The notes beneath the pieces were generated by a model. It was not told the origin of the DNA. It ran no database searches and was given only the letters and a program-made list of their open reading frames with translations. A DNA stretch of 64,000 nt from assembly GCA_002189035.1 (NCBI GenBank), contig NEEC01000002.1, forward strand, positions 4,487,001-4,551,000, in the 5' to 3' direction. Of the stretch, positions 11,768 through 62,284 are shown piece after piece. The translations under genes were made by a program, and so were the position numbers. How positions within the stretch are numbered: the stretch's first letter is position 1; each line of letters opens with the position of its first letter. The DNA is from Utricularia gibba (taxonomy: Eukaryota > Streptophyta > Magnoliopsida > Lamiales > Lentibulariaceae).

Positions 11768-12408
11768 TCTTGTACATGAGTAAAACATAAACTACTAAAG
11801 ATTTTGAGATGATCAACCTTTTTAATATAACCATGCCATTTTTCATGGGCGGTTTTTCCACTAATCGCCCTGGAAGGAAGCAAGTTCAATAGATATACTG
11901 ATGTGGATACCGCTTCAGCCCAGAAATTTACAGGAAGATCTTTCTCAAACAATAGGCATCTTGACATATCAAGAATTGCTCGGTTTCTCCTTTCACATAT
12001 ACCATTCTATTGTGGAGAATATGGAACTGTGAATTGATGAATGATTCCCTCATTTTCACAGAACATTCTCATGCTATTATTGTAGAATTCACCTCCATTC
12101 TCTGAGCTAATCATCTTTAAGGAGCATCCACTCTGATTCTCAGTCATCACTTTGAATTTTCGAAAGATATGAGGAACTTCTGACTTGCTTTTTAACAAAG
12201 TAACCCAGCAATAATGTGAATAATCATCAATGAATGTAACAAAATATCTACTTTCCCCCCTCCCCCCAATGAACATTCCTTAAATGGTCCTAAAACATCT
12301 CTATGCACAAGTTCTAATTTCTCCTTTGCTTTTGAATCACTGGAATAGAATGACTTTCTACACTATTTACTTTGATGGCACACTTCACATATGGCATCAG
12401 CAAGCTTG
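11768..12408 (-). pseudogene. Copia C1, integrase segment (left of G1)
   Basis: On minus this reads integrase of the same copia family as C2: YFVTFIDDYSHYCWV, the NGGEFYNNSMRMF block, SRCLLFEKDLP and WHGYIKKVDHLKIF. Compared with C2 (39800-40400), it has a stop after the PYSPQ block and a C-rich tract near 12246-12270. It ends abruptly at 11768, where C2 continues with DQKRGKLEKK. At 12409-12413 it meets ATGTC, the target duplication of gypsy G1; the element resumes at 24698. Integrase inserts retroelement cDNA into the chromosome; this copy is dead. Confidence 0.88.
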
Positions 12409-12413
12409 ATGTC

Positions 12414-12730
12414 TGTTGGGGTGTAAATCGGATACAGTCAATCGGTCCCTGAAAAGGTGTTACGATGGGATGGCACAGGGCAACAAACCGAAAATTGTCA
12501 AAATCTTATAGCGGCGACCGTTTTGCACAGTCTAAAAAGTGGCCAAATTACGGTAGAACATCCGGCGATTATCTAAGAAGTGAGACCATAGTACAGGCAC
12601 AGAACCGGCATCTATGAAATTCAGGATTCGGTCAGACCAACTTCTTCTATAAATAGGAGAAGTTCTGGGGACGAAAGTGTTCGACTCTAAGCCCCCTAAC
12701 CTGTATCTTCCCCCACTCTCGTCTAGTGAA
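12414..12730 (+). repeat. G1 5' LTR, 3'-truncated, with a TATA box
   Basis: The block from TGTTGGGG to TCTAGTGAA matches the G1 3' LTR remnant over its last 100 bases, including CTATAAATAGGAGAAGTT (12650-12667), a likely LTR promoter TATA box. The U5 end, the primer-binding site and the gag start are deleted: the sequence runs from the LTR directly into gag at about 12731. Confidence 0.8.
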
Positions 12731-12736
12731 AATTAT

Positions 12737-14010
12737 ATGACCACCGACTCTGTCCTTGAAGGAAGTACCAGCATACAAGACCTCGGCCTTATGGTCATCA
12801 GTAGGGAACAATTGAAGGCCCTTTTGAAGGAAATCTTCTCTGACCTTAGGGCACCTTCAGGGTTGAACTCCGACACATAGGAGGGGACACCCGAAACCGC
12901 ATGACGAGTAGAAAAGCAACCCCTGATTCCGGAATACCCTCCGGACACGGAGACCGAATTCGAAACTGAGGAGGAGATGTTGCGAAGAAAGAGGTGCAAC
13001 CAAGTCATCTATGAGCCAGGAACGGATAGGGAGAACACGACTGGCGAAATCTTAAAAAAAGGGAAGCAGAGCTGAAAAGAGAACTAGACTAGATTTGTGA
13101 GAGAAGAAAGCTTATCAGCAGACAAGAGCCACCTGAGGAGAGAGAGAGTAGGGGTTTCAGAGATGCCTTCGACCAGAACGTGTCCACTGGGAGAGGGAAC
13201 ATCTTGGCTGATATCGATTTGGCTTTAAGAAATAGTGCTGGAGGGTCAGCAGGTACCCCGGTGTTGCGTTTCGACCCTTCTCGGATGAATTAATTAGGGA
13301 AGGACCAGAGAGGGATTTAGGGTCCTCAACGGACTACCCACATACGACGGAAAAGGGGACCCCATATCCAATGCAACCGACTTTGACATGAGGATGTCAA
13401 TGGCCCGACATTCGGAAGTCATGAAATGAAAATTGTTGGCGTGCTCGCTGCAAAAGGGAGCAAAGATTTGGTTCAAGCAGTTAGAACCGTGTAGTGTTGG
13501 GTCTTACTGGAGTTGGTGTTGCTCTTCACTACCCGATATGCTATCAACATCGAAGCTCCACCTTCAAAGGCAATGTTGTATTCTATTTGGTATGACCACC
13601 GAAAAGAGAGCTTGAGAAGATTCATCGACCAATTCAACTGCTTAGTGCAAGATGTTCAGTTGGATTTGAAGGAGAGGGTAGAAATAATGAAGCGGGCCCT
13701 AGGAACGTCAAAACAGGGGCAGAGTTTGTCTAAGTCCTAACCGAAAAATCTCAGAGAATTGCTAAAGTACATCCGGGTTGATGACGACCTCAAGGCTCAA
13801 ATGAAGAGCCGCATAGAAATCCGACCGATTTCGTAGCAAGAAGTGCAGCCCAACAGGGCCCCTTGACCGAATAAACGTTGAGAAGTGTATCAGATGGGAC
13901 CGATCAAAACGGACATCTAGTGTGAGATACACAAGACAACAGGGCATGATATTGTCGACTGTCGGGTAATGAAAAGGATGATTGAGCAATATCATGCTGT
14001 CACTGGGATG
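12737..14010 (+). pseudogene. G1 gag pseudogene
   Basis: The frame starting MTTDSVLEGSTSIQDLG is open to 12880. Frameshifted pieces then follow the Tat-type gag: LNGLPTYDGKGDP-like sequence near 13330, KLLACSLQKGAKIWFKQL (about 13430-13485), FTTRYAINIEAPPSKAMLYSI (about 13520-13590, the retrotransposon gag core) and LRRFIDQFNCLVQDVQ. A CEIHKTTGHDIVDC knuckle lies near 13930. Gag would form the particle coat. At least three frame changes make it non-functional. Confidence 0.75.
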
Positions 14011-14419
14011 AACGGTGCGACCCAAGACCCCATGCAAAGGACAGAGCGAAAGAGGGGACGTAACAAACACCTGGGGAATGAAGGAGGCCGGTACTCGAAA
14101 TTCCCCCAAAACCACTAGGAGGTGCCCCACGCGCCAACAAAGGCCTGAATTCCGAAAGGAAACAAGACAGGCCGGAAAGTTCAAGAAACGCCAAACAGGC
14201 ACAACGTAAACCCCCTGATGTTCGGGAAATCCACATGGTATTTGGGGCACCGAAGTTGACGAATCAGGAAAAGCAAGGAAAAGGTGCTTGGAAGAAATAA
14301 GGAAGGGAGAAGTATTCGAAATTGGGAAAAATCAAACTGAAAGAGCTTCTTGGGAAAAAGAAGAAATCAACTTTTTTGAAAGAGACGTTCCCGTCAACCC
14401 AGCGACATGAAATGAACCT

Positions 14420-16065
14420 TTGATGGTAGCCGGGATATGCGGGAGCACCAAGGTAAGAAGAATTCTCATCGATCATGGATCCTCCTGGAACATTATGAAG
14501 AAAGAGGTTGCCGAATTACTCGCATCATTAAAGGAGGGGGATATTCGCCCGATTCGCATGGAGCTGTTCGCCTTTGATTAGCGGGCCATACAAACAGTCG
14601 GAAAAATAACATTACTCATAACATTTGGTGCTGAAGGTCGAAATCGGATGTAAAGGCTGGACTTCTTGATACTAGATTCGGAGGTTTCATACAACATCAT
14701 TCTCGGCCAACTCGGCATCAACCAATTCCGCATGTTACTTTCAACTATGCATCTGAAGGTTAAGTTTCCAACACCAAGGGGCATCTATACATTGGATATC
14801 GACCAATGGACCGCCCGATCCTGTTATGTGTCCTCTTGTCGAGACTCTTGTGCGAAAAAACCCAGAATAATGATGGTGGAAAAGGAACCCCGGGAACCTC
14901 CCAGGCAAGCAATGGAACCGGTGGGATACAAGTCACTGCAGTTAATACTGGGAGATACACAGAAGACGACCTGCATCGACATCAAGTTAAACACTGAGTT
15001 TGAAAAAAGGTTAGCAGAACTTCTAAGAAAGAATGACGATATTTTTGCCTAGACTGCTGCAGACTTTGTAGGTATCTAATGATCTGTTGCTGAGCATCAC
15101 AGAAAAAACAAGAGAGCTCTTGGAGGCCGGGTACATGAAGGAGATCCAGTACTCCAAATGGGTAGCCAACACGGTTGTTGTCCCAAAGCCTGGGGGAAAA
15201 TGGAGAATGTGTGTGGACTTCACCGACCTCAACGGGTGTTGTGAGAGGGATCTCTACCCCTTACCAAAGATAGACAAACTAGTAGATGACATTGCCGGAT
15301 CCCAATTTCTGAGCACCATGGATGCCTATTTTGGGTATTATGTGAACCCTACCCCTAGGGCTCTATCTATCAATATCGCCCGTTGCAGCCAGCGTAGTCT
15401 TGACAACCATCTCGGGAGACAAACACCTGCCGGTATATTATGTGAGCTAGGTCCTACTCCCGGCCGAAACTCGGTACACAGTAACAGAGAAATTCATCCT
15501 GGCTTTGAAAATGGCGGCCACTAAGCTGAAATCTTATTTTCAAGATCGGCATATCGTGTTATTTACCAACCAACCATTGAAAAACATTTTATCTCGACCC
15601 GAAATCTCTAGAAGGGTAGCCAAATGGGCGGTCGAGTTAAGCACAATGGACATTGAATTCATGTCAAGAACGGTGATCAAAGCCCAACCTCTAGCCGATT
15701 TTGTGGTCGAGATGATCAGACCTATTGATCGGTTCGTGGATACCAATGATCGATGGGCCATGTATGTCAACGGTTCAACATACAACGGGGTTGGAGGAGG
15801 AATAGACATCTGAACTCGGGACGGGGAACACTTTTATATCACAGTGAAATTCTTATTCCCTGCCTCCAACAATGTAGCTGAGTTGAAGGGATGAAAATTG
15901 CCAAGGAACTCAGAGTTGTGGAACTCAACGTTTACACCGACTCACGACTAGTGCAAGGACAATATTCGGGTGAGTATGAAACCCATTACACCCTAATGGC
16001 TTTGTATTGTGCTAGGGTGAAGGAGTTGGTGAAGACTTTGAAGGAGTTTACCTTATTGCAGGTCT
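14420..16065 (+). pseudogene. G1 protease, RT fragment and two RNase H domains
   Basis: The protease spans about 14430-14850 and reads RRILIDHGSSWNIM, where the family has D(T/G)GSS, and later YNIILGQLGINQFR. The RT N-terminus (15087-15340) has VVVPKPGGKWRMCVDFTDLN and LPKIDKLVDDI, then LSTMDAYFGY. The sequence then jumps within a few codons to the RNase H region (VLLPAETRYTVTEK, KSYFQDRHIVLFTNQPLK, 15505-15710), so the RT catalytic half is deleted. A second RNase H follows (MYVNGSTYNGVGGG, 15750-15800, and ELNVYTDSRLVQGQYSGEY, 15918-15975), the dual RNase H layout of Tat elements. Stops and frameshifts are frequent. It ends at about 16065 against Athila A1. Confidence 0.82.
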
Positions 16066-16355
16066 TATTGCAATTCTGTGATATACACAGAAGACTTATT
16101 GTGCTATCTCACAAAAATAATAGAAGAGAAAACATGCTCACTGGTTCATAAATTGGCCATAACAAAACTCATGCATTTCGTGCATCATGAAAAACATCCC
16201 ATGCTTGTACAGGAATTCCTCAACCATTCACAGAATCCTCTTGACCACAATGTCGTACTACCAAATTACTCCTAACTTAGACTACTGCCATAAAGATAAA
16301 AATAAAGATAAAAATAAAAATAAAATGAAAATAAAGATGAGGCAGTGCAACGATG

Positions 16356-18311
16356 TTAATTGATCAGGGAGGAGTCCTTCACTCCCTGTTTCAGTTCCTT
16401 CACTTCCCTTAACAAATCCCCAAGCCTGTCATAAACCATGTCAATTCGCTCTTTGCAGCAGCAGCCCTTTTCTTTCGTTCGGTTTGTGAGTGTTTGAGCA
16501 GAATTTCCTCCCTTTTCCTTCAATGGGGATTCTTTCCCGCATAACCCTGCAAGAGACCTAAAGACAAGCCCACTCCCTCGTGCCTGAATTAGTCCTGAAG
16601 TCTTAAGGAAATGAGCATTTAAAGGGACACTTTTTGGTTCAACATGAAACAATGCCAATTCTGTGATCCTATCCGCACACAGCACTCTAGCTAAGAATGT
16701 TACTACATTACCGAATCTGAGCTGATTGATGGTTCTACACCTGTAGTCACGGTTCATCTGTTCTGCTAAAATTGCACCTAGGTTCAAAGATTTTTTGTGC
16801 AGAAGACACCACAAAACAAACATCTCACGCTTATACAAGGAATTGAATCCTATAACACGTCCGAACAGAACATCAGAAATTAAGAGATGAACATATCTCG
16901 TGGCAGGATCAGTGAATAAATATGCCTTGGTGCCCTTAGATTTAAACTCGATGACAAACTGATCAGTCAACAATCCATACACCTCCTCAGCATCAAACTC
17001 ATCAGGATAATCAAATAATGATGTAGCAAAAGCATGCGAGTTCACATCATGTTCTGAGCAGAATCCTAGCACAACATTCCATTCAGCAAGAGAGAACGAA
17101 AACTCTTTTCCTAGCAATCTAAATGTCCCAGCAGCAGGTGTCAAAACTGTCTCAGGTTTTTCAAATAAAAAGGTAGCAGCAAATTCATAGGTTAACTCGA
17201 CATATGCAGGGTAGTTCATGTCACACAATATTAACAGATTTGTGCCCTCCAACATAGAATAAACATTCTCAACAATTCCTAATTCAACTAAAATTTCATT
17301 ATCAATTATATGACTAGGCATTACCTTGGCTCCCTTTACCTCATTGTACCTCTCTAATTGTTCCTCGTTGGTGAAATCAAGGTACTTCAGATTCAGCATG
17401 TCTGCATGGTGTTTAAAATAGGTGATTCCCTGGCTTGTCATCTTTCTGTGTGATTTCTGTTTCTCCTCTTCTGCATGTTTTCCTGAACTTAAAAACAATG
17501 GAACAAGGTTTGGTAGATATTTCTCCCATTTTGTCTCAATTTCTGCTTCAACATCCTCTTCCTTGTCCAACTCTTCTGCCTCTGGTTCAGGTTCTATTGT
17601 TTTCTTGGTTTTACTCATCCTTCTTGCAACAAGGCCTCCATCACCATCTTCTTCAGTCATTGTTGCAACGTCTGTTGCTGCTTCTTCTCCTCCCTGTTGA
17701 ACTTGCTCTCGAGTGTTGGGTTCCACCTCTATTTCTCCAGCCACTTCTTCCATCTTTTCTGAAGTGTCCTCATCACTTGGTGTCATCATTTCCACTTCAG
17801 GATTTGTCTCCTCCACTTCGTCTACCATGATCTTTTCTGCTGTTGCCTGTTTGGTGGTTTCTGTTGGCTTCCTTTGGGCCTTTCTCCCTGTCTTTTTCTT
17901 TTGATATACAATCTTCGGTTGCTTATCTGGTGCCTCCTCCACGACCAGTTTTCCTTTTCCCTTGTAACTCTTCCTCAATGCTTGCAATTTCTATTGGAGG
18001 TCAGGACTAGCAGGAGACTTTAACCGTGGGCTTCTCCTTTCCATCACTGGAGATCTCCCTGCTTTCAGAGAGGAAGTTCCACCCGATTTTGATGCATGTT
18101 GGAGAGCTTCCACACCCTGAAATGCTTCTTTAGCTGAGGTTGCGACTCTGGTTTGTTCCTGGTTAGGAGTAATAGTGACTGCCTTTTCAGTTTTCTTGCG
18201 TTTGCTGCTTTCAACAGCGATCTTCCTGTCCGATTTTGCAGCAGCAGCACTCTGATGTTGGCATTTTGCAAGCATCTTGTGAGATAATTTTTCTGCAACC
18301 CTCAAGAACAC
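16356..18311 (-). pseudogene. Athila-type 3' ORF (plant transposon protein of unknown function), one internal stop
   Basis: About 650 codons in one frame are broken by a single TAG near 17991 (after SPASPDLQ). The first part is basic and low in complexity. Next comes a strongly acidic, Glu-rich stretch (about 17950-17540). A folded-looking domain follows from about 17450, with KMTSQGITYFKHHADML, RYNEVKGAKVMPSHIIDNE, LVELGIVENVYSMLEGTN, LLGKEFSFSLAEWNVVLGF and FGRVIGFNSLYKREM. This matches the domain often annotated as a putative plant transposon protein in Athila-like elements; it sits where Athila has its env-like frame. I see no signal peptide or clear membrane segment. A2 carries a decayed, N-terminally shortened copy (34449-35400). 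The role is unknown. Confidence 0.75.
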
Positions 18312-18619
18312 GATGAAGAGTTTTGAAACAAAGTGAACGTTACAAAGTAATTTACCCCTAAATTTTCAAAAGGGTTTGGGGGCAGTTTTGTAAAATCCTA
18401 ACAGTTAGTCGCAACCCTTGTACTTTACTTTCCTATAACCGCAATGCAACTCCCCCATTTTGCAAAAGGAACACGACACAGATTCTCCAAAATTACTCCT
18501 AGCTAAGTCTAAAAATGCAGAAGTAAAATAACAGGAAAATAAAACTAACAGAAATTAAACTTGGGTTGCCTCCCAAGAGCGTCCTTGTTTTCAGTCCTGG
18601 ACTAGACTTTCAGCAAATT
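18312..18619 (-). other. A1 spacer between pol and the 3' ORF
   Basis: About 300 bases are non-coding. They contain a conserved TTGGGAGGCAACC-type motif (on minus, near 18565-18580) that also follows the chimeric frame in A2 (34335-34350). Conservation in two separate copies suggests a function for the element, for example in processing or expression of the downstream frame. Confidence 0.45.
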
Positions 18620-21051
18620 CTACGTCGTTTCCGTGTCCCTTAGGACAAGAACTTCAACTTCTTCACCAAACCTGTTTTGAAGATTTTCATAAAAAATCTT
18701 CAACCTATGTCCATTCACAATAAAACTTGTGTTCGTCCCTCCATCATAAACCTCTACTGTTCCGTTTGGGAAAACTTCTTTCACTACAAATGGTCCAGTC
18801 CAACGAGATTTGAGTTTCCCTGGGTGTAACTTCAGTCTAGATTGAAACAGCAACACTTTTTGACCAACTTCGAAGGACCTCCTGGAAATATGCTTGTCGT
18901 GGTAACTTTTAGTCTTAGCTTTAAATAACTTTGAGCTTTCATACGCATCATTTCTCAGCTCTTCCAGTTCTGAGAGCTACAGTTTTCTTTGGCTTGCACT
19001 AAGACTTTCATCAAAGTTTAGCCTCTTCACTGCCCACCAGGCCTTGTGCTCTAATGCAGCAGGTAACCTGCAGGGTTTTCCATAAACTAGCCTGAATGAA
19101 GAGGTCCCAATTGGTGTTTTATATGCTGTTCGAATTGCCCATAAAGCATCCCTCAGTCTCAGACTCTAGTCCTTCCTGTTCGGGTTTACCACTTTCTCTA
19201 AAATCTGTTTAATCTCCCTGTTTGATACCTCCGTCTGGCCATTTGTTTGTGGATGGTATGCTGTTGATGGCTTGTACCAAACGTTGAACTGCTTCAATAC
19301 ACTTCTCAAGGCCTGATTATAAAAGTGCGTACCTCGGTCATTGATCAGCGCCTTGGGAGTCCCATATCGCACAAAAATGATATTACGCAGAAAATTTATC
19401 ACTGTCTTTGCGTCATCTGTCCTGGTAGGAATGGCTTCAATCCACTTTGAGACGTAATCAACAGCTACTAAAATATAGTTGTAGCCTGCAGAAGTGGGGA
19501 ATGGCCCCATAAAATCAATGCCCCAAACATCAAAATATTTCACATACCAGGATTCCTTGCTGAGGCATTTCGTCCCTATTGGATAAATTTCCCACTCTTT
19601 GGCATGGCTCACAACCCTTGCAATAAGCATAACAGTCTCTGAAGATGTGAGGCCAGTAGAATCCACAGTCCAAAATTTTCCTGGCTGTACGGTTTGGTCC
19701 ATGATGGCCACCAAACGGTCTTGCATGACAAGAATTGATAATTTTAGGAATTTCAAACTCATGAACACACCTTCTAATGACACCATCATTGCATCTCTTC
19801 CAAAGGTAAGGATCGTCCCAAATATAATATTTGGCGTCACTCTTCAATTTGTTCTTCATGTGATAATCAATTCCCGGCGGCATCACTCCTGCTGAAACAA
19901 AGTTAGCCAAGTCTGCAAACCACGGCTCACGAATATTAGTCCTAACTAAGAATAATTGTTCATCCGGAAATGTTTCAGTGATAGGACTATCATTCTTCAG
20001 CCCTTCCATCCTACTGAGATGGTTAGCGACCATGTTCTCTTTCCCAGGCCTGTCTTTAATTTCCACATCAAACTCCTGAACAAGGAGAACCCATCTGATC
20101 AATCGTGGTTTGGTCTCCTTCTTCTCCATCAAATGTTTTACTGCTGAATGGTCTGTGTAGACCACAATTTTGCTCCCTAGAAGATAGCAACAAAATTTCT
20201 CCAAAGCAAAAATTACAGCTAAAAATTCTCTTTCAGTCATAGTGTAATTTTTCTGAGCATCATCTAAAGTTTTGGAAGCATAAGAAATAACATGATGTTT
20301 CCCTCCAATTTTCTGTCCTAAAACCGCCCCTACAACATGACTACTAGCATCACAAATAATTTCGAAATCATACCTCCAGTTTGGTAGTTGAATCACAGGA
20401 GCAGTAGTCACAGCCTCTTTTAAGCAATTAAAAGCATTTTTGCATGAATCATCAAAAAGAAATTCCACATCATTATGCAAAAGTCTACTAAGAGGCAAGA
20501 CAATCTTAGAAAAATTCTGAATAAATCTTCTATAAAAACCAACATGTCCCAGAAATGATCTCACACCTTTAACATCAATTGGATACGGTAACTCAGTCAT
20601 AATTTCGATTTTTGCTTTGTCTACCTCAATTCCCTTCCTAGAAATAACATGGCCAAGCACAATTCCATGATCAACCATAAAATGACATTTTTCAGAATTA
20701 AGAACAAGATTTTTTTCAACACATTTTTGTAAAACCTGATCCAAATGGTCTAAACATGACTCATAATCCTCTCCATACACTGTAAAATCGTCCATAAAAA
20801 TTTCTATGAAATCCTCACCAAAGTTTGAGAAGATGCTGGTCATACACCTCTGGAAGGTAGTAGGGGCGTTGTACAACCCAAAGGGCATCCTTCTATAGGC
20901 ATAAGTCCCAAATGGACAGGTAAAAGTAGTCTTATCTTGATTCGTACCTGAAATTGCAACTTGGTTATATCCAGAATAACCATCTAAGAAACAATAAAAA
21001 GATTTTCCTGCTAATTTTTCGAGCATTTGATCAATGAAAGGTAAGGGGTAA
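18620..21051 (-). pseudogene. A1 reverse transcriptase, RNase H and integrase
   Basis: The frame at 21026-19530 is open for 498 codons. It holds RT ([27 protein letters not shown], and FMDD in place of YVDD at about 20790), RNase H ([37 protein letters not shown]) and the integrase zinc region ([10 protein letters not shown], then CEPCQR). The integrase catalytic part continues in another frame (19615-19166) with [21 protein letters not shown] and the glutamate in [10 protein letters not shown]. The C-terminal part with WTGPFVVKEVFPNG lies at 18856-18620 after stops. The N-terminal RT palm is missing: protease sequence runs from DFYMVNM directly into PLTFHDQ-like RT sequence at about 21045, with a frame change. 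These enzymes copy and insert the element; this copy cannot. Confidence 0.9.
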
Positions 21052-23188
21052 TTTTTCAGGCATATTTACCATGTAGAAATCTGCTGGAAACACTAGCTGC
21101 TCAATCTTCACAAGAACATCTTCAACCAAGCCCTTTGGAGAAATAACTCTTCCGTCAGCTAGTTCAATATGCACTCCCGAGGCTTGTAGAGGTCCTAACC
21201 GGAGAGTTTCATATACAGAAAAAGACATCACGTTTATAGAGGCTCCCAGGTCAGCCATTGCTCTCCTGATGTTCAGGTCACCTATTTTGCAAGGAATAAA
21301 AAATGTTCCAGGGTCCTTGCGTTTTTCAGGTAATTTCCAAGTCAAAAGGGCTGAACAACTCTCACTCATATTCACCTTGCCTTTTTCCTTCAATTTTGGC
21401 TTTGACATGCAGAGCTGCTTCAAGTACTTCACGCTCTTGGGCACCAAATCAATATACTCCAGCAATGTCAAATTTAATTGGGTATTTCCCAAGGCTCTCA
21501 ACATCTTTTCTTTTTCATTTTGCTCTTCTCTTGCCTTCAGCCTTCGTGGAAATGGTGGTGGGGTCACTTTTACCACGAGAGGTTCAGTAGCAATATCCAC
21601 CTCCTGTTCTTCAGCATCTTCTTCCACCTCAACTTCAGACTCTTCTACCGTCTCTAAATTACTCTTAGGTAGGACTAATTCTCTGCCAGGCTTTTCTTTC
21701 CCGCTCCTTAGTGTCATTGCGCTGATATTCTGTCCTCCCCCAGAGTTGGGATTCTGTTTGGCTTGCGACGGTAGGCTTCCTTTTTGCTTCAGCTCCCCAA
21801 CCTTTGTTGCTAGCTGAGTAACTTGAATTTCTAAATTCTTGATAGCTTGTTGGTTCTCAGCTTGGTTTTTGATTGATTGAGTCATGAAAGTCTTCAAAAT
21901 ATCCTCCAATGAAGTCCCAGAATTTCCTCCAGAATTATTCTGGTTTGGAGGCTGAAATTGCTGTTGCATCTGCTGGTTTGGCTTGCGAAATGATGGAGCT
22001 TGATAAGAACGTTGCTGCTGCTCCTAGAAATTCTGCTGAAATCCTTGCTGTCCAGCTGATGAACTCTCACCCTTGTAAGAATTATCATTGTTACTCCATC
22101 TGAAATTTGGATGATCCCTCCATCCAGGATTGTAGGTGTTCGAGTAGGGATCATATTTCTTCCTTTGTGGCTCCAAATATCCCATTGCCTTCACATGTTC
22201 TTCCTCCATCAATTCGGGACATTTATCAGCGATGTGTCCCATTCTGTGGCAGTTCCCGCAGGGATATTCTTAGCTTGGAATAAAAAGAGTTCCTTCATCA
22301 TCTCGGACATGGCTACCACATTTTTCGTCAGCTCATTTTCTGATGACTTTGGCTTGCATTCCAGCTCATATACTCTTCTATTCGAGGCCTGTTTTCTGAT
22401 TATATGCCTGGAATGCTCAGCCAACTCCTCAAGTAGCGCAAGAGCTTCTGTGGGAGTTTTTTTCCTGAAAAATCCACCTGCTGCAGAGTCCACCATGGCC
22501 CTATCTGTGCATAGAAGACCATCATAAAAATACTTGACCAATGCATTGGTCTGAAATCCGTGGTGTGGACAAGAGCCTAGCAGGTGATTAAAACGTTCCC
22601 AATATTCATGTAGAGATTCTCCACTTGTTTGCTCAATGTCACTGATCTCCTTCCTTATTCCTTCCGCTTTTGAAGCAGGGAAATATTTGCTGAGAAATAC
22701 TTTCTTCATCCCACTCCAATCTGTGATACTTCCAGGCTTCAAAGAGTTAAACCACGTTTTTGCACTCCCTTCCAGTGTAAATTGGAATGCCCTCAAACGG
22801 CATCCTCAGTCATACCAGCACTCTTAAAAGAGGTGCAAACAGCAGTCACGTTGTCAAGATGTTCATGTGGGTTCTCACCCACTTTTCCATAATACTTGGG
22901 CAGAAAATTAATCATAGCTGGCTTCAATTCATTGGCTGTGTCATCAGAGAACTTAATACACAGCCCTCTGTACGTATGGTCAGCTGCATCAAGCTCATTC
23001 AGAGTCTTCTCCTGTTCTGCCATATTGAAATTAGTTTGAGCAACAGCAGGGACTGTGCTCAACCTTGCTGCTTCTCTCACTCTTGTGCGGTTCTTGCTGA
23101 TAGTTCTCTCGATTTCTGGATGGAAAACAAGATCACCTGCACCAGAAGAACGCAAATGCATCAACCGAATCACAAAACAATTAAACAC
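21031..23188 (-). pseudogene. A1 gag and protease
   Basis: Gag runs in three frames. 23188-22793 contains TYRGLCIKFSDDTANELKP and a frame change follows. 22796-22209 holds the gag core FQFTLEGSAKTWFNSL, LHEYWERFNHLLGSCPHHG and VYELECKPK. A second change falls inside the zinc knuckle, whose end reads RMGHIADKCPE (from 22242). The rest is Gln/Asn-rich, then a coiled-coil-like stretch, then the protease with DLGASINVMSFSVYETLRLG (about 21255-21195), so the protease aspartate is kept. The frame breaks in the knuckle and core rule out a working polyprotein. Confidence 0.85.
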
Positions 23189-23191
23189 CGC

Positions 23192-23209
23192 TCCCCGGAA
23201 ACGGCGCCA
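23192..23209 (-). other. A1 primer-binding site (tRNA-Asp type)
   Basis: Two bases inside the LTR the minus strand reads TGGCGCCGTTTCCGGGGA. This is the Athila-type site complementary to the 3' end of plant tRNA-Asp, with one change from the usual TGGCGCCGTTGCCGGGGA. It fixes the orientation of A1 and the inner edge of its 5' LTR. Confidence 0.85.
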
Positions 23210-23212
23210 ATT

Positions 23213-24386
23213 TGATAAACGAAAAAATTGTACAAGTCGTTAATTGCAAATTTTCCTATCAAATAAATTTATAACCTAACCCACATTCAAGCATAAAACA
23301 ATTATGAGCATAGTGATTAGGGTCGAACACAAAGAGTAGGTGCTTGTCAAGTGATTAGCCAAAGCATGAAATTAGTGTCACGTTGGTAAAATTGGTCTTA
23401 ACTAGGACTAAATCAGGACTACAACGAAATACAGTAAAGAAAAGTAACAAGTTTGGATTCGGTAGTTTCTGAAATGGAATGGGTGATGCCTTGGGACTCC
23501 TAGGGGATGTATGCATATCACTAAACAAGCTCACATAAATAAAAAATCATTCAACTAACTCACAAGATCTAGGTGTACCCAGATTCTTGTTTTTCCCCCT
23601 AATCTTTGGTCTACCTCTAATTAGGGTTGTTAGTTGGGTTTCACTACCTCCCCCTCCTAGATCTATCCTGGTTTGCTAAAGAAGTAGTGTGACTTATGAT
23701 TTATGAAGTCTAAAGATGGATTAGCATATTTCTCCCTTCTCACCCCAAGGCATCCCCCTCTAAGTGCTTAGCTACTCATGGTAATGGAAAGTAAAACACC
23801 TTCATAGCAGATACTAAGCAACATCTTGGCTACAAATGCTAAACAAAAACGAGCAATATGAAGCAAAAGTAGGACAAACACTTCGTTCACACAGGAAATC
23901 CAAATCTAGTCTTAGCTATGAATAGTAAACATGAAGAACGAAAATAATTTCTCAAGAGAAGCTGTGTTCTTCTGGTTCGTCATCCCCTCCTTCTTCTTCC
24001 TCTAGAAAAATCTCCAGAAACTTGTCTTGAGTCTCCAAAGGGAGATCTCTTTCTCTCTCCACCTTTCCTCCCTTTTTGTCCAAAATCTTCCTTTTTTTCC
24101 TCCTTGGACTTTGTGTGTACTCTTCTTCAAACTTCTGTCACATTTCCTGCCACCACACTGTTCATACTCGGCTCCTTGGGATTTGTGTTGCGACCCATGC
24201 TGCATTGCTTGAAAGGAACTGTTAGAAGGTTTGGACTAAATCGCAGATTTAGTCCCAACTAAGACTAAAAGTGCACTCCTACAGTACTTATGTGCAAAAA
24301 TATAGAAACCGGCAATTAAGCTTAATTTTTGTAGCATAAAATGAGTAAATTCCATGCATTGAGCCACTCAAAAATATGTGTTATCA
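23213..24386 (-). repeat. A1 5' LTR
   Basis: The block is 1174 bp, with TGATAA...TTATCA ends on either strand. It is closely related along its length to the interrupted A2 3' LTR (36228-37118 plus 42493-42765). Bases 23486-23490 show the ATGCC (GGCAT) site into which copia C2 jumped in A2, still empty here. Confidence 0.88.
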
Positions 24387-24692
24387 GGTTTCGGTCAAAC
24401 CGACCTCTTCTATAAATAGGAGAAGTTCCTTGGAGGAAAGGGTTTAACTCTAAGCCCCCTAACCTGTATCTCCCCCCACTCTCGTCTAGTGAAGATATTT
24501 TCCGGCGAGCTCTAACTGCTTCGTAGTTTTTTCGTTCTCCTACGGTTTCCACATAAAAAATCTTCGTCCTTCTTTATTTTCATTAAACACATCAAGCAAA
24601 GCATAAAACCCATACTCCCGGGTTTGACGTCTATAGTGAACTCCATAACCCGAAAATCGGTTTTGACCCTAGTGCAATTTTTCCCCTTAACA
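24387..24692 (+). repeat. G1 3' LTR remnant
   Basis: This begins mid-LTR (GGTTTCGGTC) against A1, carries the TATAAATAG box at about 24413 and ends CCCCTTAACA at 24692 before the ATGTC duplication. It supplies the U5 end that the 5' LTR has lost; together they imply an LTR of about 510 bp. Confidence 0.8.
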
Positions 24693-24697
24693 ATGTC

Positions 24698-26335
24698 TTT
24701 CAATTCTAGTACTTCCTTATTCTTCTGCAATATTTTCAGATTGTTAAAGTTATAGTGCCCAAAACGTTTGTGCCAAAGGTTGCTTTGATACTGAAGTGAG
24801 AAAATACAATTTTTATGATCACTAACCAAGATTTGGTAGACGTTGTAGGTGGTCAACACAGCATGGAATTCAATTTTTGTTTTTGGATCAGCAACTTTAA
24901 CTTTTGGGGTTATACCACCAGCATTCCTTCATACGCTCAATGTCAAAACCTTGCCTACTCAATTGGCCAAAGCTCAATAGGTTCTGTTTGAGGTTTGGTG
25001 AATAATATACATCATCAACTTGAACAATTCCTTCTTTTAGCATGAGTAAAATGCTTCCTTTGCCCACAATGCCAATATTTTCACCAGTGGACGTGCTTAC
25101 CTCCTTCCCAATCTTTTCAAGCTGGAGAAATGATCTTGTATCACAACATACATGATTGGAGGTGTCAAAATCTAAATACCAGCCTTTAGCATCTGATACT
25201 ACTGTCATTAGAGCACACTCATAATCACAAGGATCTTCAAAAGATATTTCTGGCTCGTCTTTAAAGTAGGTAAAGGATGCATGTGATTTTTCATCCTTAG
25301 AAGTAGTCTTCTTGTTATGATCAACTTTGATTGGATTTGACATTCCACATATCTTGTCAAGATGGTCTCTTTGATTACATTTCGTGCACAAAGCATCAGG
25401 CTTCCACCAACAAAACTCACTCCTCTCATTCTGTTTGTTGCAATGCTTGCAAGCATTTGTGCTTAACGTCCAACAATCTTCACTCTTGTGGTTGGATTTA
25501 TCACAACGCCTGCACTTCTGATTACCCATGGTTGAAGTTGAGATTGACGTTGGTGATTGTTTGATGGCTGTTGACTTGACATCCTTGACATTGTTAGTTA
25601 CACCTGAGTTTATATTCATATTCTGCATTTTGGTGAGGAGAGCAACTTCATCATAAGTTTTCTCAACCTCATAACCATCTCTTAGTTCCAATCTCTTTTC
25701 TGTAGATTGCAACTCAATCATGAACTCTCTAAATGTTGGCTCTTGTGTAACAGGATATTCAGGATACAACTAATGAAGCTTTCCTTCAATAATGTCAAGG
25801 ATTTTTCTTTCTGTCTCAAGTGCACATAACTTTGACTCGAATCTTGCAGGTAGGCTCATGATTGCCTTGCTAATCACCTTTTAATCCTCAAGTTTTTCCC
25901 CTAATCCTCGAATCTCCTTCACAAGCTTTGTAGTACGTTCATAATAGACTTGTATGGTTTCATTGTCTAACATTTTGTTCCTCTCAAAGTCCTCCAGCTT
26001 GTTTTTGCATATTATCTCTTTGAGTTTGACATCACCGTCATAATGGGATTTGAGAGTATCCAATATTTCTTTCGCTGATTGACACTCTGCAATATCATCA
26101 AATAGATGTTTAGAAATGGCTTGATATAAGGCATCTAGTGCTTCATTTTTTCTTTGTTAAAGATACTCAGCTTCCTCTTACTGTTCTGATGTAGATTTTC
26201 TTGTTACTGTAATAGCCGGTATCTCCCTTTCAAAAACATCCCAAATCTTTCTGACTCAAAGGTAGCTAGGCATCTTTTTTACCCAACTTCCATACTCAGA
26301 ACCATCAAATATCGGAGGCCCTCTACCAAATGCCA
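24698..26335 (-). pseudogene. Copia C1, gag, zinc knuckle, protease and integrase N-terminus
   Basis: Gag begins near 26333 (FGRGPPIFDGSEYGSWVKKM) with several stops and continues with LFDDIAECQSAKEI and NKLEDFERNKMLDNETIQVYYER (25881-26063). The open frame 25769-24897 holds the zinc knuckles (CRRCDKSNHKSEDCW, CTKCNQRDHLDKIC) and the protease, where C2 has YLDSGASYHVC and C1 has the decayed YLDFDTSNHVC. The start of integrase (LWHKRFGHYNFNNL) lies at about 24780-24740. It stops at the G1 duplication and resumes at 12408. It is the more decayed relative of C2. Confidence 0.88.
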
Positions 26336-26445
26336 TCATAGTCACCGTTTGACAAGCTTTGGGTTGATACTTGGCCAACCACTAAGTGAAAAAGCCTGAA
26401 CAGTAAATAAAATACTGAAACGAACACAGGTTTGAGAACCCTACT

Positions 26446-26551
26446 GCTCTGATACTATGTTGATGCAAGAAAGATAGAGTCTTGGTAAGGAAAAAAGAGA
26501 TAATTCTTATGAGATCAACTTCAAGCTTTGGATTGAAACTGATCTCCAACA
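26446..26551 (-). repeat. C1 5' LTR with internal deletion, and primer site
   Basis: 26458-26551 starts TGTTGATGCAAGAAAG and ends GATCTCCAACA, matching both ends of the 320-bp C2 LTR with about 225 bases missing from the middle. Inside it (26446-26457) the minus strand reads TAGTATCAGAGC, an initiator-Met type primer site with one change. To the right the tandem-array unit A starts. Confidence 0.8.
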
Positions 26552-37438: not shown

Positions 37439-37946
37439 CTCCCCCCAGACCGAGATCTCCCAACTTGAGAAAGTCTTCTATAGTCATGAGATTCATGTTC
37501 TTCCTTGCTAGCTCAAACTGAACTCTATTCAAACCTTTGGTGAGCCCATCAGCAAGCTGATTCCCACTCTCAACATACTGCACTTTAATCTTCTTCTCCT
37601 TGATGTAATTCCTTATGACATGATACCTGATTCTTATGTGCTTGGCTTTGCTGAAGTTCGTTGGATCTTTGGCAATGGAGATTGCAGCTCGATTATCCAT
37701 AAGCAGATGTGTAGCTTCCTTTTGTATGAATCCAAGTTCGTTTAGCATCTGCCTCAACCAAACACAATAGTTCGAAGCATATGCTGCTGAGATGTATTCT
37801 GCTTCAGCTGTTGATTGTGCTACCACTTTTTGTTTCTTCGAAAACCAGACTACAGGACTCTTATTTAAGAAGAAGAGTGCACCAGATGTGCTCTTGCTAT
37901 CTTCAGCCATACCATAATCACTATCTGAGTAGGCTCTAAGTTTCAA
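37389..37946 (-). pseudogene. C2 RNase H
   Basis: This is the terminal copia domain: LRAYSDSDYGMAEDSKSTSGAL, WFSKKQKVVAQSTAEAEYISA, LLMDNRAAISIAKDP, KHIRIRYHVIRNYIKEKKI. Residues typical of the active site (D in YSDSDYG, E in AEAEY, D in MDN) are present. It lies one frame off the upstream RT frame, which overlaps it by four bases (RT stops at 37943), so the polyprotein is broken here unless the base is a sequencing error. The stop falls inside the 3' LTR. Confidence 0.85.
37439..37449 (-). other. C2 polypurine tract
   Basis: Immediately inside the 3' LTR the minus strand reads TCTGGGGGGAG, a purine run in the place where plus-strand DNA synthesis is primed in LTR retrotransposons. Confidence 0.75.
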
Positions 37947-40305: not shown

Positions 40306-40367
40306 AAGCTCTAATTTCTCCTTTGCTACTGAATCACTGGAATAAAAGGCTTTCTATACTGTTTACC

Positions 40368-41570: not shown

Positions 41571-42049
41571 GATTCCTTGCTAATCACCTTTTGATCCTCA
41601 AGTTTTTCCCCCAATCCTCGAATCTCCTTCACAAGCTTCGCAGTACGTTCATAATAGACTTGTATGGTTTCATTGTCTAACATTTTGTTCCTCTCAAAGT
41701 CCTCCAGCTTGTTTTTACATAATATTTCTCTCAGTTTGGCATCACCTTCATAATGGGATTTGAGAGTATCCCATATTTCTTTTGCTGATTGACACTCTGC
41801 AATATCATCAAATAGATGTTCAGAGATGGCTTGATACAAGGCATCCATTGCTTCATCTTTTCTCTGTTGAAGATATTCAGCTTCCTCTTGCTGTTCTGAT
41901 GTGGATTTGCTTGTTATTGTAATCGTCGGAATCTCCCTTTCAACAACATCCCAAATCTTTCTGACCCGCAGGTAGCTACGCATCTTTTTGACCCAGCTTC
42001 CATACCCTGAACCATCAAATATTGGAGGTCCTCTACCAGATGCCATCAT
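41567..42049 (-). pseudogene. C2 gag N-terminal part
   Basis: It starts at the first of two adjacent ATGs (42049): MMASGRGPPIFDGSGYGSWVKKM, then WDVVEREIPTI, MDALYQAISEHLFDDIA, KNKLEDFERNKMLDNETIQVYYER. This is the usual copia gag (UBN2-type) fold. One missing C (AAGGAATC against AAGGCAATC in C1) at about 41575 shifts the frame and ends it at KES, cutting gag from the knuckles. The open frame extends upstream to 42277, but that part is LTR and leader. Confidence 0.85.
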
Positions 42050-42155
42050 AGCCACCGCTTGAAAAGCTTTGGGTTGATACTTTGTAATCCACCAAGTAAA
42101 AAACGCTGAACGGTAAATAAAATACTGAAACGAGCACTGGTTTGAGAACCTTACT

Positions 42156-42487
42156 GCTCCGATACCATGTTGATGCAAGAAAAAGAGAGTCTTGGGAAGT
42201 AACAAAAAAGTAATGCTTCTGAGATCACCTTGGATGAAAAACGACTCATGAACAATAAGAATGACCAAAACCTTCATTCACGCATTCCTAGTAGGGTTTA
42301 TATATACCCAATACCTAGGTTACCCAACAGTGGGCCACAATTATTGAAAACACACAAAAAGCCCAACAACTCGAATCCAACACTTCCATGCTCGAACTCA
42401 ACACCTTTTATCTGAAATATAACATTATGACACAAGATTAGTGCTTCCAATCACCTTCAAACTTTGGATTGAGGCTGATCTCCAACA
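42156..42487 (-). repeat. C2 5' LTR and primer-binding site
   Basis: The LTR is 42168-42487, 320 bp. Directly inside it (42156-42167) the minus strand reads TGGTATCGGAGC, the plant initiator-Met primer site (TGGTATCAGAGC) with one change. GGCAT follows on the right (42488-42492). Confidence 0.92.
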
Positions 42488-42928: not shown

Positions 42929-42961
42929 AGGTTTCTGCAAGTAGAGGGTGAGTGAATTGGA

Positions 42962-49892: not shown

Positions 49893-50763
49893 ATGGACTG
49901 GAACAATGAGAGTTACAACAGAGTGCCGGGCTTAAGTTTCATTTCTCGGCCTGAGAACTCGCTGGGATTCCTCTACAACTGTACTTATGATCAGTTTCCT
50001 GGTAAGTAAATGCAGTACTTCTCCTGTTTTGTTCTTGCAGGTTTCATGGAATCTGCCTGCATGTTAAGACAGACATAAAAACAAAAATGCTCTGTTCTCT
50101 TAAGTTATACGAGAATAGAGCAGTGTATATCTTCTTCTTCTTCCTCTGTGAGTTCAGTCGGTCTGATTTTTTTCTGCATGCAATGAAACGGTGAAAGCAA
50201 CGAGTGATAAACCATTTTCCAAAGTAGTCACCTTTATCCGTTGCTGCTCTTGAATCACACCAGTACAGTATCACTTTTCCGTTTCGCCCCTTTCATGTTT
50301 AGAAGAAGTCAAGCAACAGCACCAGGCATCGATCTCAGCAGCAGGGCAGATGCTTCCATCGACATTTATGGGTAAAAGCAACGTTGGGTGTATCAACCTC
50401 TATGGGCAGGATCCCAAAAAGAAGCGGCTTAGCAATGAGCAATTGGAGTCCTTAGAAAACAGCTTCCAAGAAGAAATCAAACTCGATCCAGATCGCAAAA
50501 TGAAGCTCTCCAAGGATCTGGGCCTTCATCCCCGACAAATCGCTGTGTGGTTCCAGAACCGGCGTGCCCGGTGGAAGTCGAAGCAGCTGGAAAGCCTATA
50601 CGATGCACTGAAGCAGGAATTCGACGCCGTTTCAAGGGAAAAGCAGAGGCTGCAGCAGGAGGTGATGGCGCTGAGGGCGATACTGAAAGATCACATTGCC
50701 GGGAAGCAGATATCGGCGGGTACACCGACATGTCCGGCGAAGAGACGGTGGAGAGCACCTTAA
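49893..50763 (+). CDS. HD-Zip class I transcription factor (LMI1/ATHB-51/ATHB-22 type), 3' frameshift
   Basis: HD-Zip I proteins bind pseudopalindromic DNA as dimers in the nucleus; this clade acts in leaf and meristem development. Exon 1 (49893-50001) encodes [11 protein letters not shown]...NCTYDQFP, followed by a GTAAGT donor. Exon 2 starts at 50303 after TTTAG, in phase. The product is 189 residues. The homeodomain spans about residues 75-131 ([20 protein letters not shown], then [17 protein letters not shown]), with the leucine zipper directly after it ([24 protein letters not shown]). After KQISAG the frame leaves the family pattern; one frame over, [13 protein letters not shown] and an NWAALP end at 50885 continue it. 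One base appears lost between 50720 and 50721. DNA binding and dimer domains are intact, so a shortened protein could work. Confidence 0.88.
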
Positions 50764-59169: not shown

Positions 59170-61960
59170 TCATCCTCCAACTTTCCTTTGCAAGAGTTTC
59201 CTGAGGTGTAGTAGGTTCTTCTATTTTAAAGTCCTCTTCCGTCCATGATAAACGAAAATTTCTAGTGTCGTTGCAAAAATAGAAAATTCGTTATCAAATA
59301 AAATTTATAATCCCTAATCATCACAAAATACAAATTAAACTGAAAATGCACAGTGGAATTCGGGGTCGATCACAAGAAACTTGTGCTTGTCTTGTATTTC
59401 AGCAAATGCAGAATTCAAAGTAGGTAAGTCTTAGTCCAAGCTCGAAACAACAGTTGTAAACAAGTTCGGTAAACAAGGTCAGTAAGTAATATCAAGGTCT
59501 ACCTCTAAATCAAGCATCTAAGTTGTAAAGCTATTTGTTCCCCTCCTTAGGTCTACTCATGGTTTGATAAAAACAAGAGCTAAGAAACTAAGGTCAATTT
59601 TACTAAGACTCTTAGACCCACACCACCATGCTTCACCTTAAGGCACTCCTAGGGTTTAGCTACTCATGCTTTAAAGGTAAAATGTAATGCCATTAACATA
59701 AAAAAGCGAAAATGTTGAGAACATCGTGCAGAAGTTTAGTGCAGAAACTAAAGACATCAACAAACTAAAAGAAAGCAAAAAGTAATCTTGTTTCTGTCTG
59801 CTACTGTTCTGGGCTGGACCAGTAGCGCTGAACTGGCTCTTGATCTTCTTCCTTCAAGCTGGAGGTTCTTCTCCAGAAAAATCGCCTTTCTTCCCCCTTC
59901 TTCCCCGTGTTTCAGTTGGGGTGGGGGGAGAAACCCCCTCGTGTGTGCCCTCTTGAAAATTGTGGGATGATCTCCCTTTTTTTGTGATTCTCTCTCTTCA
60001 GCTTTCACTTGCCTCCCACTTTCCAAGGCAAGTACATTCTCTAACAGATCTGCTGCTCCAGGCCCTGACTTGCAGACTGTCGCCGTGACAGTGTACTCAT
60101 TGCCCTATGCACCTTGGTGACTTACACAAATCCAGATTTTTCCTTGATTCTTGTGCTGCTGCTAGACTCCAAAATCAGGTTAGACATGGGGTGGGCTAAA
60201 TCAAAGGATTTAGCCCACTAATCACACCAAAAATCATCTTTTCCCGAATCAAATAAAAATACTTAAAACTATAAAATTAACACTTAAACATAATTAAAAT
60301 CTTTGATTTTTCTTATCCTAAAACATGAAAATTTGTGTGTTATCAGTCCAATCATATAGTAAGTTGATATAAAACTCTTTAGAATTTGGTGGTGCACTAG
60401 ATGAGGTTTTTGATATTTTCAATGAAGGATTCTAGAAGTTTGGATAGTCAAAGGACCAATTCCACATATTTAATTCATTGATCATAACATTCTTGGTAAT
60501 ACAAAACTTCTTAGTTAGAGGGTTGCAAATTTTGTATCTCTTTTCAAACTTCAGAGTAGCCTATAAGGATGCCTCCTTCACCTCCTTATGTTCATGCAAG
60601 ATGGTGAGGTGCCTTTTCATTTTTCATACAGAGTGCCTCCTTTCAATTTTCTGTTGGGAAGTATATTTTACAAATAGATAGCTATTGAGACTATTGCTTC
60701 CCATAGAGTATGTGACAATCCTTTATCTAGTAGTAGGTTCCTCACCATAGTCATGATGCTTCTATTCTTTCTCTCTACTACTCCATTTTATAATCAAGAA
60801 TTCCATGATCCTAAATGTAGAGGTCAAAGAAAAAAGAGTAGAATTCTCCGCCGTTATCAATACTTAGAAATTTGATAGAGGAACCGCTTTCCTTCTTTGT
60901 TAAAGCCTTGAAGATTTGACACGTTTCTAAGGCACTATACTTGTATTTCAAGAAGTAGATCCAAAAAAAAGGGAGTTAGATCATCAATGAAGGTAACAAA
61001 ATATTTGATCCTAGTAAAAGAATTTACCTTCAATGAGCTGCAAAAATCTAAGTAAGCTAGAGCCAAATTTTCAAATGCTCTAAAGGTTCTAAGTTGAGGA
61101 AAATGTACTTGTGTTAGTTTGCTTTTGGCATAAATACTATACTAAGTTCCCTTCATTTTCTTCTAAAACTCTATTATTCCTCTGATCAGTGCTTGTTTAG
61201 ACATGTTGTATATGTCCTTAAGATTGGCATGCCTGAATAAATTATGAAAGTACTATGTAGAAGTACCAACACAAGACAAGTGATTTTGTTCCAAGTTTAA
61301 ATATTTTTCAAAGGTCACATTGGATCCTTTCTTTACTAACTAATAATGCTTAGAAGATTCATTTCTAGTTGTGGCACCCACAATACATCATCTATGTATC
61401 TTAGAAGATTCATTTCCTTTGTCTTGTGCCTTCATGATGTTACCAATGCCAATTTCAACATTAGCAAAAAAACTGGTGTCAAGAGTGTCAAAGAATTCCC
61501 TGTTGCATGTCATGTGAGATGATCACCTTGAATCTATTTGCAAGGAATTGTAAGTCATCTTGTGACTTGCTACAGAGCATGTAAAATTGAAGCGAAGACG
61601 TATTGTGTTACTAGAGAGTTTTTTGTTTTCCTATCTGGAAAAATCCTCTCAACATGGTGGTTTGCACACCTTGCAAATGATGTATGGCCTCTTCCAACAC
61701 TATTTAGCATAGTGATGTGTTTTCACAAAACAAACGAGATGGAAGCTTGTTCTCCTTTTCTTTGTTGCCATTTTGCCTAGAACTTACAATAGTGCTACAG
61801 TCCCCTTGGCATGTTGAAGGCATTTGAAATTTGAGAGCTACTAGAGGTCTTTCAAGTGCTAAGCAATCCCTTAGTATGTGATTTTCTAAAGCTTGTACTA
61901 GAGCAAATTGAGGTAGCAGGGAGTTTAGGATCTTCTCAGTAACCACAAATTGAGGTAGTT
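59170..61960 (-). pseudogene. Degenerate copia C4 (gag and integrase), split by solo LTR A3
   Basis: On minus, 61946-61704 reads like copia gag (VTEKILNSLLPQFALVQALE, then LALERPLVALKF). Integrase is recognisable at about 61000-60680 (VTFIDDLTPFFWIYFLKYK, SSIKFLSIDNGGEFYS, RNLLLDKGLSHTLWEAI). The region after integrase continues at 60560-60350 (INELNMWNWSFDYPNF) and, past A3, at 59240-59170 (EEDFKIEEPTTPQETL). RT is not attached. There are many stops and frame changes. It belongs to a different copia family from C1-C3. Confidence 0.75.
59246..60345 (-). mobile_element. Athila-like solo LTR A3
   Basis: The 1100-bp block has TGATAAACG...TGTGTGTTATCA ends and GTCCA on both sides (59241-59245 and 60346-60350). 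It resembles the A1 and A4 LTRs at the ends and in the AGGTCTACTCATGG region. No internal sequence is present, so LTR-LTR recombination removed the body. It interrupts copia C4, and is therefore younger. Confidence 0.88.
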
Positions 61961-62103
61961 CAGACTTTCAACCCATTTCTGGTGATCTGATTCTGGTCTT
62001 GTTCATTGGTTCACATTTGGAATTGCAATCGGCAATCACCGTTGCATCAGCTGCACCCAGATCAATGTGTACACTGATAATTATCTTATTCTTCAACATT
62101 ATG
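61961..62103 (-). other. Unassigned sequence between C4 and GDSL exon 2
   Basis: An open stretch on minus continues from GDSL exon 2 as IMLKNKIIISVHIDLGAADA and stops at 61968. It does not follow the family (HAIS/TQQLEYF is usual after AQLY). A foreign piece has probably replaced the exon end. Confidence 0.45.
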
Positions 62104-62233
62104 TATAGCTGTGCAGTCCCATCGTAGTAGCTGGAAGCTCCCGGCATGAAGTTGGCTCCGATCACGATGTTTCTTCCATCTGCATCCTAGTTGAGATACG
62201 TCGGTGGGTACGAGTCAAACCCCAGAAACTCCA
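62104..62233 (-). pseudogene. GDSL esterase/lipase exon 2 (partner of 11159-11417)
   Basis: On minus, after an AG acceptor at 62235-62234, the exon reads VEFLGFDSYPPTYLN, a TAG stop (62189-62187), DADGRN, then IVIGANFMPGASSYYDGTAQLY. Plant GDSL lipases have E(Y/F)LGFTSYPPAYLS and LLIGANFASAASGYYD here. The first base pair completes the phase-1 codon left by exon 1 at 11417 (G|TG), and the residues follow DFT as expected. The exon is cut at AQLY. With a stop and no later exons, it cannot make enzyme. Its separation by 50 kb and opposite strand from exon 1 is the key evidence for the inversion. Confidence 0.85.
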
Positions 62234-62284
62234 CTATCGACTTTCTGGAAAAGCAAGCGATTTTTAAAATAAACATACAATAAA

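What the first reader, a model, noticed from the sequence alone, without database searches (positions are those of the whole stretch)
11768..62284. Both breakpoints of a ~50.5-kb inversion lie in the window, and two unrelated genes prove it
Seen: GDSL exon 1 is on plus at 11159-11417 and its exon 2 on minus at 62233-62104. Copia C1 is on minus and stops in integrase at 11768. Copia C3 of the same family is on plus and starts at that same codon at 62285. Re-inverting the interval restores exon order, splice phase (ACTG + TGGAG) and the continuous copia in one step. Only AGA/TCT is shared at the joints. Known: simple inversions cut two places and swap the ends, and microhomology at joints is typical of end joining. 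Inferred: one break fell in the lipase intron and one in the copia; the HD-Zip gene and the tandem array changed orientation relative to PLATZ.
Basis: partly seen in the sequence, partly recalled or inferred. Interest (0 to 1): 0.9.

Follow-up and report, generated by a model that had tools for sequence, protein, structure and literature searches.

The report
Old plant inversion, both breakpoints preserved
A 50-kb stretch of a small plant genome was flipped end for end, splitting a now dead lipase gene and an old retrotransposon, whose halves still fit together; the case is unusually clear but of an ordinary kind.

Summary
The finding holds. GDSL exon 1 (plus, 11159-11417) and exon 2 (minus, from 62233) belong to one gene: each of four homologous proteins tried aligns from one onto the other without a gap, and no second copy of exon 1 was found in the 100-Mb assembly. 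The copia pieces at 11768 and 62285 meet at the same nucleotide, sharing only AGA/TCT. Independent support comes from the element's far ends. Its 5' LTR (26551-26458) and 3' LTR (77888-77981, outside the window) share an internal deletion of about 226 nt; full-length matches were 2 of 40 scored, these two. Their flanks, CGTTG/CATTG, agree at 4 of 5 bases. Contig C88 carries the same right joint, so an assembly error is unlikely there.

Corrections: most of the left 'intron' is a 324-nt solo LTR (11441-11764) on the joint. The copia's 5' half is split by a 12.3-kb Athila-like element, so 50.5 kb is today's span. The lipase is a pseudogene.

Best reading: two double-strand breaks rejoined in inverted order by end joining, after the copia insertion. 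The genome is probably Utricularia gibba (inference). New member of a known kind.

The parts
9365..9937 (-). PLATZ transcription factor open frame, outside the inverted interval
   Evidence: Pfam PF04640, E 5.4e-31
11159..11417 (+). GDSL lipase pseudogene, exon 1 (86 codons + G); GEFxxD where homologues have GDSxxD
   Evidence: no Pfam family for this frame
11418..11440 (+). left half of GDSL intron 1 (23 nt), ending in the first copy of AAATC
11441..11764 (+). solo LTR of another LTR retrotransposon family, sitting on the left joint, with 5-nt duplication AAATC at 11436-11440 and 11765-11769
   Evidence: 12 other places match; ends read from the 3 of 7 aligned copies that were in the same orientation; copy L018 goes on into TTTGGTATCAGAGC, a tRNA-Met-type primer site (label recalled)
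11768..11770 (.). left joint: TCT, shared with AGA at the right joint
11768..12414 (-). copia piece C1 (integrase region), 3' end of the 5' half
   Evidence: 91% to C2 39773-40410
12415..24692 (-). nested Athila-like element inside the copia 5' half, duplication ATGTC at 12410-12414 and 24693-24697
   Evidence: Pfam ATHILA and RT/RNaseH on minus
24693..26551 (-). copia piece C4: rest of the 5' half, with its short 5' LTR at 26458-26551; target duplication CGTTG at 26552-26556
   Evidence: 92% to C2 40405-42231
37119..42487 (-). copia copy C2 of the same family, used as ruler only; 320-nt LTRs, duplication ATGCC
50254..50763 (+). HD-Zip open frame inside the inverted interval
   Evidence: Pfam PF00046 and PF02183; homologues
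62104..62233 (-). GDSL exon 2 (one in-frame TAG); its end is uncertain, similarity reaches 62094-62061 with some homologues
62234..62284 (-). right half of GDSL intron 1 (51 nt)
62285..62287 (.). right joint: AGA
   Evidence: same bases in contig C88
62285..63396 (+). copia piece C3a, start of the 3' half; goes on outside the window at 76918-77981 (C3b with short 3' LTR 77888-77981, target duplication CATTG)
   Evidence: 88% and 90% to C2
63397..64000 (+). 5' LTR and start of a nested LTR element within C3 (strand nominal), ending outside the window at 76916
   Evidence: LTR pair 94.6% identical

Best explanation
The interval 11768-62284 is a derived inversion. One break fell in intron 1 of a GDSL lipase gene or pseudogene, the other in the integrase region of an already inserted copia retrotransposon about 50 kb away (today's span). 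The four ends were rejoined in inverted order by end joining, with 0-3 nt shared or filled in and no detectable loss from the copia. Shown: reciprocal joints, exons without other copies (apart from C88), one copia split in two, the right joint in a second contig. Inferred: the double-strand-break and end-joining route, and the order of the later nested insertions. A solo LTR now sits on the left joint; most simply its parent element inserted there after the inversion. No gene product is expected from the split lipase.
For: GDSL: all 4 homologues tried (of 6 found) align to exon 1 up to their residues 83-87 and to exon 2 from their residues 81-85, with no gap between. Of 11 paralogue loci fetched (L045-L055), 9 stop matching at query residues 84-88, where the split intron would lie; L047 has a phase-1 intron of about 77 nt at that codon. 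The window's intron halves add to 74 nt once the solo LTR is left out. Exon 1 occurs once, exon 2 here and in C88 only; the other 44 of 47 matches are 28-50% identical. Copia: C1 and C3 overlap by 3 nt in C2 coordinates. The short LTR form is full length at 2 of 40 scored places, the two ends of this split element. CGTTG/CATTG flank them; the LTRs differ at 11 of 94 sites. C88 repeats the right joint.
Against: The left joint is present once only and no reads could be mapped. The two best-scoring paralogues (L045, L046) read through the splice point without an intron, so the intron is not universal in the family. Pfam's GDSL model does not reach this pseudogene. The copia target duplication matches at 4 of 5 bases (chance of 4 or more about 1.6%, my arithmetic). 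In one search, 108 of 148 candidates were not scored. C88 differs from the window by few substitutions (5 of 16,749 and 7 of 2,039 sites), so it may be a recent duplicate rather than the other haplotype. No related species' genome could be compared, so the uninverted order has not been seen anywhere.
Confidence: 0.94

Rival explanations
1. Assembly error: two false joins made around repeats in one contig.
For: The left joint is seen in one contig only, and the copia is a high-copy family (40 scored matches of 85 candidates, itself included).
Against: The right joint is also in contig C88. Both joints bring intron bases against the middle of the copia, not against a repeat end. Two independent errors would have to be complementary to the nucleotide in two unrelated features, and a solo LTR with a perfect duplication sits on the left joint.
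Confidence: 0.03
2. Inversion by ectopic recombination between inverted repeats.
For: The region is full of dispersed repeats, including inverted pairs about 50 kb apart at 2531-3568 and 52576-53668, and TE-mediated inversions are well known.
Against: No repeat is seen at both joints. The solo LTR has no second copy in the 72 kb searched. The copia pieces at the joints are complementary halves, not copies. The inverted pairs lie 8-9 kb from the joints.
Confidence: 0.02
3. The solo-LTR element made the inversion itself, by joining its two ends to two distant target sites.
For: The LTR lies within 1-5 nt of the breakpoint, which is a coincidence under independence.
Against: It has the same 5-nt duplication AAATC on both sides, and the AAA of the right copy is not copia sequence in C2 or in the 4 of 7 family loci that could be printed. 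This is the mark of ordinary one-site insertion.
Confidence: 0.02

Closest known systems
Simple two-break (cut-and-rejoin) inversions, e.g. inversion O7 of Drosophila subobscura (PMC7584159: start of abstract and search listing seen; that staggered breaks are at issue is inferred from the listing's word counts)
   Same: Two breaks, rejoined ends, at most a few shared or duplicated nucleotides (features of the kind recalled)
   Different: Very small (50 kb), in TE-rich plant DNA, and polarity is read from two features broken inside one genome rather than from relatives
Inversions by ectopic recombination between transposon copies (Galileo, PMC2775673: start of abstract and search listing seen)
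   Same: A transposable element lies at a breakpoint
   Different: Here the copia was a passive target: it was cut in two and no second copy took part
Alternative transposition in maize (PMC8225341: start of abstract and search listing seen; Ac/Ds recalled)
   Same: An inversion that disrupts a gene, with TE sequence at a joint
   Different: No DNA-transposon end was recognised at the joints by eye; the LTR at the left joint shows an ordinary insertion

Membership tests
Two-break inversion by end joining | Two reciprocal joints that together restore both broken features | tested here: met
   GDSL protein continuity; copia pieces meet with a 3-nt overlap
Two-break inversion by end joining | The two copia halves come from one element | tested here: met
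   Short LTR form at both ends, 2 of 40 scored, 108 of 148 candidates unscored; 4-of-5 target duplication
Two-break inversion by end joining | No long homology at the joints | tested here: met
   Three nucleotides TCT/AGA
Two-break inversion by end joining | Use of microhomology rather than staggered fill-in | tested here: inconclusive
   The ancestral intron is not available; three paralogue introns were looked at by eye and show no clear likeness
Two-break inversion by end joining | Uninverted order in relatives | not testable with these tools
   The tool says that G000 has no relatives here
Ectopic-recombination inversion | Inverted copies of one repeat at both joints | tested here: not met
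   Solo LTR only at the left joint; inverted pairs are 8-9 kb away
Alternative transposition (class II) | DNA-transposon ends at the joints | not tested
   No dedicated search; none was recognised by eye in the joint sequences
GDSL lipase (PF00657) | Match to the Pfam family model | tested here: not met
   None of the 60 genome matches lies here; exon 1 frame 0 families. The exon 2 frame was not scanned (one search stopped at its stop codon)
GDSL lipase (PF00657) | GDSxxD catalytic block | tested here: not met
   GEFxxD. A decayed relative by homology to named GDSL proteins, not a working enzyme

The most novel reading that the evidence does not exclude
The solo LTR and the break are not independent: a lesion tied to insertion of that LTR element, or to its collapse to a solo LTR, supplied the left double-strand break, so a retrotransposon insertion that looks ordinary nucleated an inversion at its very border.
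Probability: 0.08. Interest if true: 0.5.

Novelty: new member of a known kind. Interest (0 to 1): 0.3.

Why it matters
Inversions are commonly recognised by comparison with relatives. Here polarity, both joints and an upper time limit can be read from one genome, because a gene and a datable retrotransposon were cut at once. It gives a base-pair-level example of an end-joining inversion in what is probably the tiny Utricularia gibba genome, and a caution that a TE at a breakpoint may be a victim or a latecomer rather than the cause. Functionally it is minor: the lipase is a pseudogene and no effect on the HD-Zip gene was shown.

Tried and rejected
Rejected: misassembly (C88 carries the right joint); gene capture of the two exons (no other copies apart from C88); repeat-mediated inversion (no repeat at both joints); two-site integration by the LTR element (normal duplication). 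The inverted repeats about 50 kb apart were set aside because they lie 8-9 kb from the joints.

Led nowhere: the 865-nt sequence present in C88 but absent from the window at 61958/61959 shows no clean terminal repeats or target duplication; a note of mine gave it a 6-nt duplication and 857 nt, which I withdraw. Later GDSL exons: none convincing in the window, the 48 kb to its right, the 10 kb to its left, or C88, with four partial homologues and one paralogue locus as queries; one weak match (P0003, E 0.13, 95181-95047 in extended numbering) was taken as chance. The solved-structure search with the GDSL piece gave 0 matches. One search used the wrong locus (L027 for L026), so its 41 matches concern another sequence and were dropped. 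Dating rests on a recalled substitution rate. The listings of literature searches show no description of this inversion (of 25 and 22 papers only 12 each were listed; three papers were looked at by passages); most subscription papers are not held.
Full report
What was checked. The window is G000:C451:4487001-4551000 of a 100,091,633-base assembly in 516 contigs. C1 (11768-12414, minus) corresponds to C2 39773-40410. C3 (62285 onward, plus) begins at C2 39775 and runs the other way. The two pieces thus stop at the same place of the element, sharing TCT/AGA and nothing more. The 4 of 7 family loci that could be printed beside them read TCTGGTA there.

The lipase. Exon 1 translates to 86 residues and ends ACT G; exon 2 begins TG GAG. 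Homologues from Striga and Rhododendron are 55% and 57% identical over 98% and 87% of the joined query (6 proteins found). The 4 homologues tried align to exon 1 up to their residues 83-87 and to exon 2 from their residues 81-85. Of 11 paralogue loci (L045-L055), 9 stop matching at query residues 84-88; the two best-scoring ones, L045 and L046, read through without an intron. The paralogue in L047 has a phase-1 intron of about 77 nt at the same codon. The window's intron halves are 23 and 51 nt. No other copy of exon 1 was found (0 of the 22 other matches touch it), and exon 2 is found again only in contig C88. The gene is dead: GEFxxD stands where homologues have GDSxxD, one TAG lies in exon 2, and no convincing later exon was found with the partial homologues used. 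Pfam's GDSL model did not match here, so the label rests on the named homologues.

The left joint is not plain intron. In one search the bases from 11433 to the joint match 12 further places (11 by pieces of about 230-280 nt, one by 89 nt), with shorter side pieces at ten of them. Seven copies were aligned; four of them had been cut out in the opposite orientation, so the ends were read from L015, L016 and L018. The repeat begins TGTTGGATC and ends TTTCA; in L018 it is followed by TTTGGTATCAGAGC. It is therefore an LTR, here alone, at 11441-11764, flanked by AAATC on both sides. Leaving it out, the joint passes from intron to copia within the letters AAATCT. Either the parent element inserted at the joint after the inversion, or it was in the intron and the break fell 1-3 nt beyond its duplication; the sequence does not decide. 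Because the duplication is regular and its AAA is not copia sequence in the copies seen, the LTR did not itself join two distant sites.

One copia, split in two. The 5' half is C1 plus C4 (24693-26551), separated by a nested element at 12415-24692 with duplication ATGTC, which carries Athila-like and reverse transcriptase domains. The 3' half is C3a (62285-63396) plus C3b (76918-77981, in window numbering past its end), separated by a nested LTR element. The LTRs at the two far ends are about 94 nt long, where C2 has 320 nt. When the 95-nt stretch with the 5' LTR was searched in the whole genome, 2 of 40 scored matches covered its full length: itself and the 3' LTR of C3b. The other 38 matched only from position 29 or later (108 of 148 candidates were not scored). 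With flanking internal sequence, 1 of 40 (itself) was continuous in each (167 candidates; 153 candidates). In one search, 26 of the 39 other copies show their first 38-39 nt (one from position 4) about 200-226 nt away, that is, they have the long LTR; many of these lie in rows on a few contigs and are not independent. The remaining 13 show no such piece. A deletion shared by the two ends and by no other scored copy marks them as one element. Its flanks CGTTG and CATTG agree at 4 of 5 positions, as may be expected for an old duplication; C2, as control, has ATGCC on both sides.

Time and state. The copia's LTRs differ at 11 of 94 sites, K2P 0.127. At 1.3e-8 per site and year (recalled rate) this is about 5 million years, an upper limit for the inversion; the small number of sites makes it rough. 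Contig C88 (29,760 bases) matches 45203-61958 and 61953-73767 at 99.9% and 99.4%, differs by an 865-nt presence/absence at 61958/61959, and carries the right joint unchanged. Substitutions are few, 5 of 16,749 and 7 of 2,039 sites. C88 is most simply the other haplotype, so the inversion is probably present on both; a recent duplicate is not excluded. Copy C2 inside the interval is young (LTR K2P 0.009) and may postdate the inversion, as may the 12.3-kb element; the original inverted segment may have been shorter than 50.5 kb.

Mechanism. Shown: reciprocal joints, with no loss from the copia and little if any from the intron. Inferred: two double-strand breaks joined in inverted order by end joining. 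The three shared letters could be microhomology or a filled-in 3-nt stagger; a match of 3 or more occurs in roughly 5% of random joints (my arithmetic), so it is weak evidence. Ectopic recombination is contradicted because no repeat lies at both joints.

Organism. The best three homologues of the HD-Zip open frame by E-value are from Genlisea, Sesamum and Paulownia (120 of 647 listed, no Utricularia name among them), all Lamiales by recall; Utricularia gibba is in Lentibulariaceae, the family of Genlisea (recalled). A paper on U. gibba speaks of a 6.8-Mb Unitig_8 (PMC8333044, passages seen); C451 has 6,822,880 bases. Against this, a review gives the U. gibba genome as 82 Mb (PMC5793159, passages seen), less than the 100 Mb here; that the long-read assembly is near 100 Mb in about 500 contigs is my recall. 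I take the genome to be U. gibba, as an inference.

Verdict. A real, well-preserved, small inversion whose polarity can be read from one genome. The kind is long known, and the gene it cut is dead now. Interest is moderate to low.

Noticed in passing
window 61958/61959 against C88 16759-17623 (L023): C88 has 865 nt that the window lacks; no clear target duplication or terminal repeats, and no match in the 112 kb compared.
   Followed up: partly
window 12415-24692 against 33031-37118 and 42487-42765: Parts of a second Athila-like element lie in inverted orientation at 33-43 kb, and the young copia C2 is inserted in that copy.
   Followed up: partly
window 26553-32925: Two to three repeat copies with spacings 3808 and 1957, beginning directly at the copia's 5' end; unit not identified.
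   Followed up: no
window 2131-3569, 27322-28754, 52576-53721; also about 85602-86974 and 109088-110582 in extended numbering: A dispersed repeat of about 1.1-1.5 kb, mostly 88-95% alike over its aligned pieces, at five or more places in 112 kb, unidentified.
   Followed up: no
LTRs of the split copia (26458-26551; 77888-77981): The short LTR lacks about 226 nt, apparently between two AAGGTGAT direct repeats of the long form, and is present at both ends, so the element seems to have transposed with the shortened LTR.
   Followed up: partly
window 62596-62844: A 126-nt tandem duplication inside the copia 3' half.
   Followed up: no
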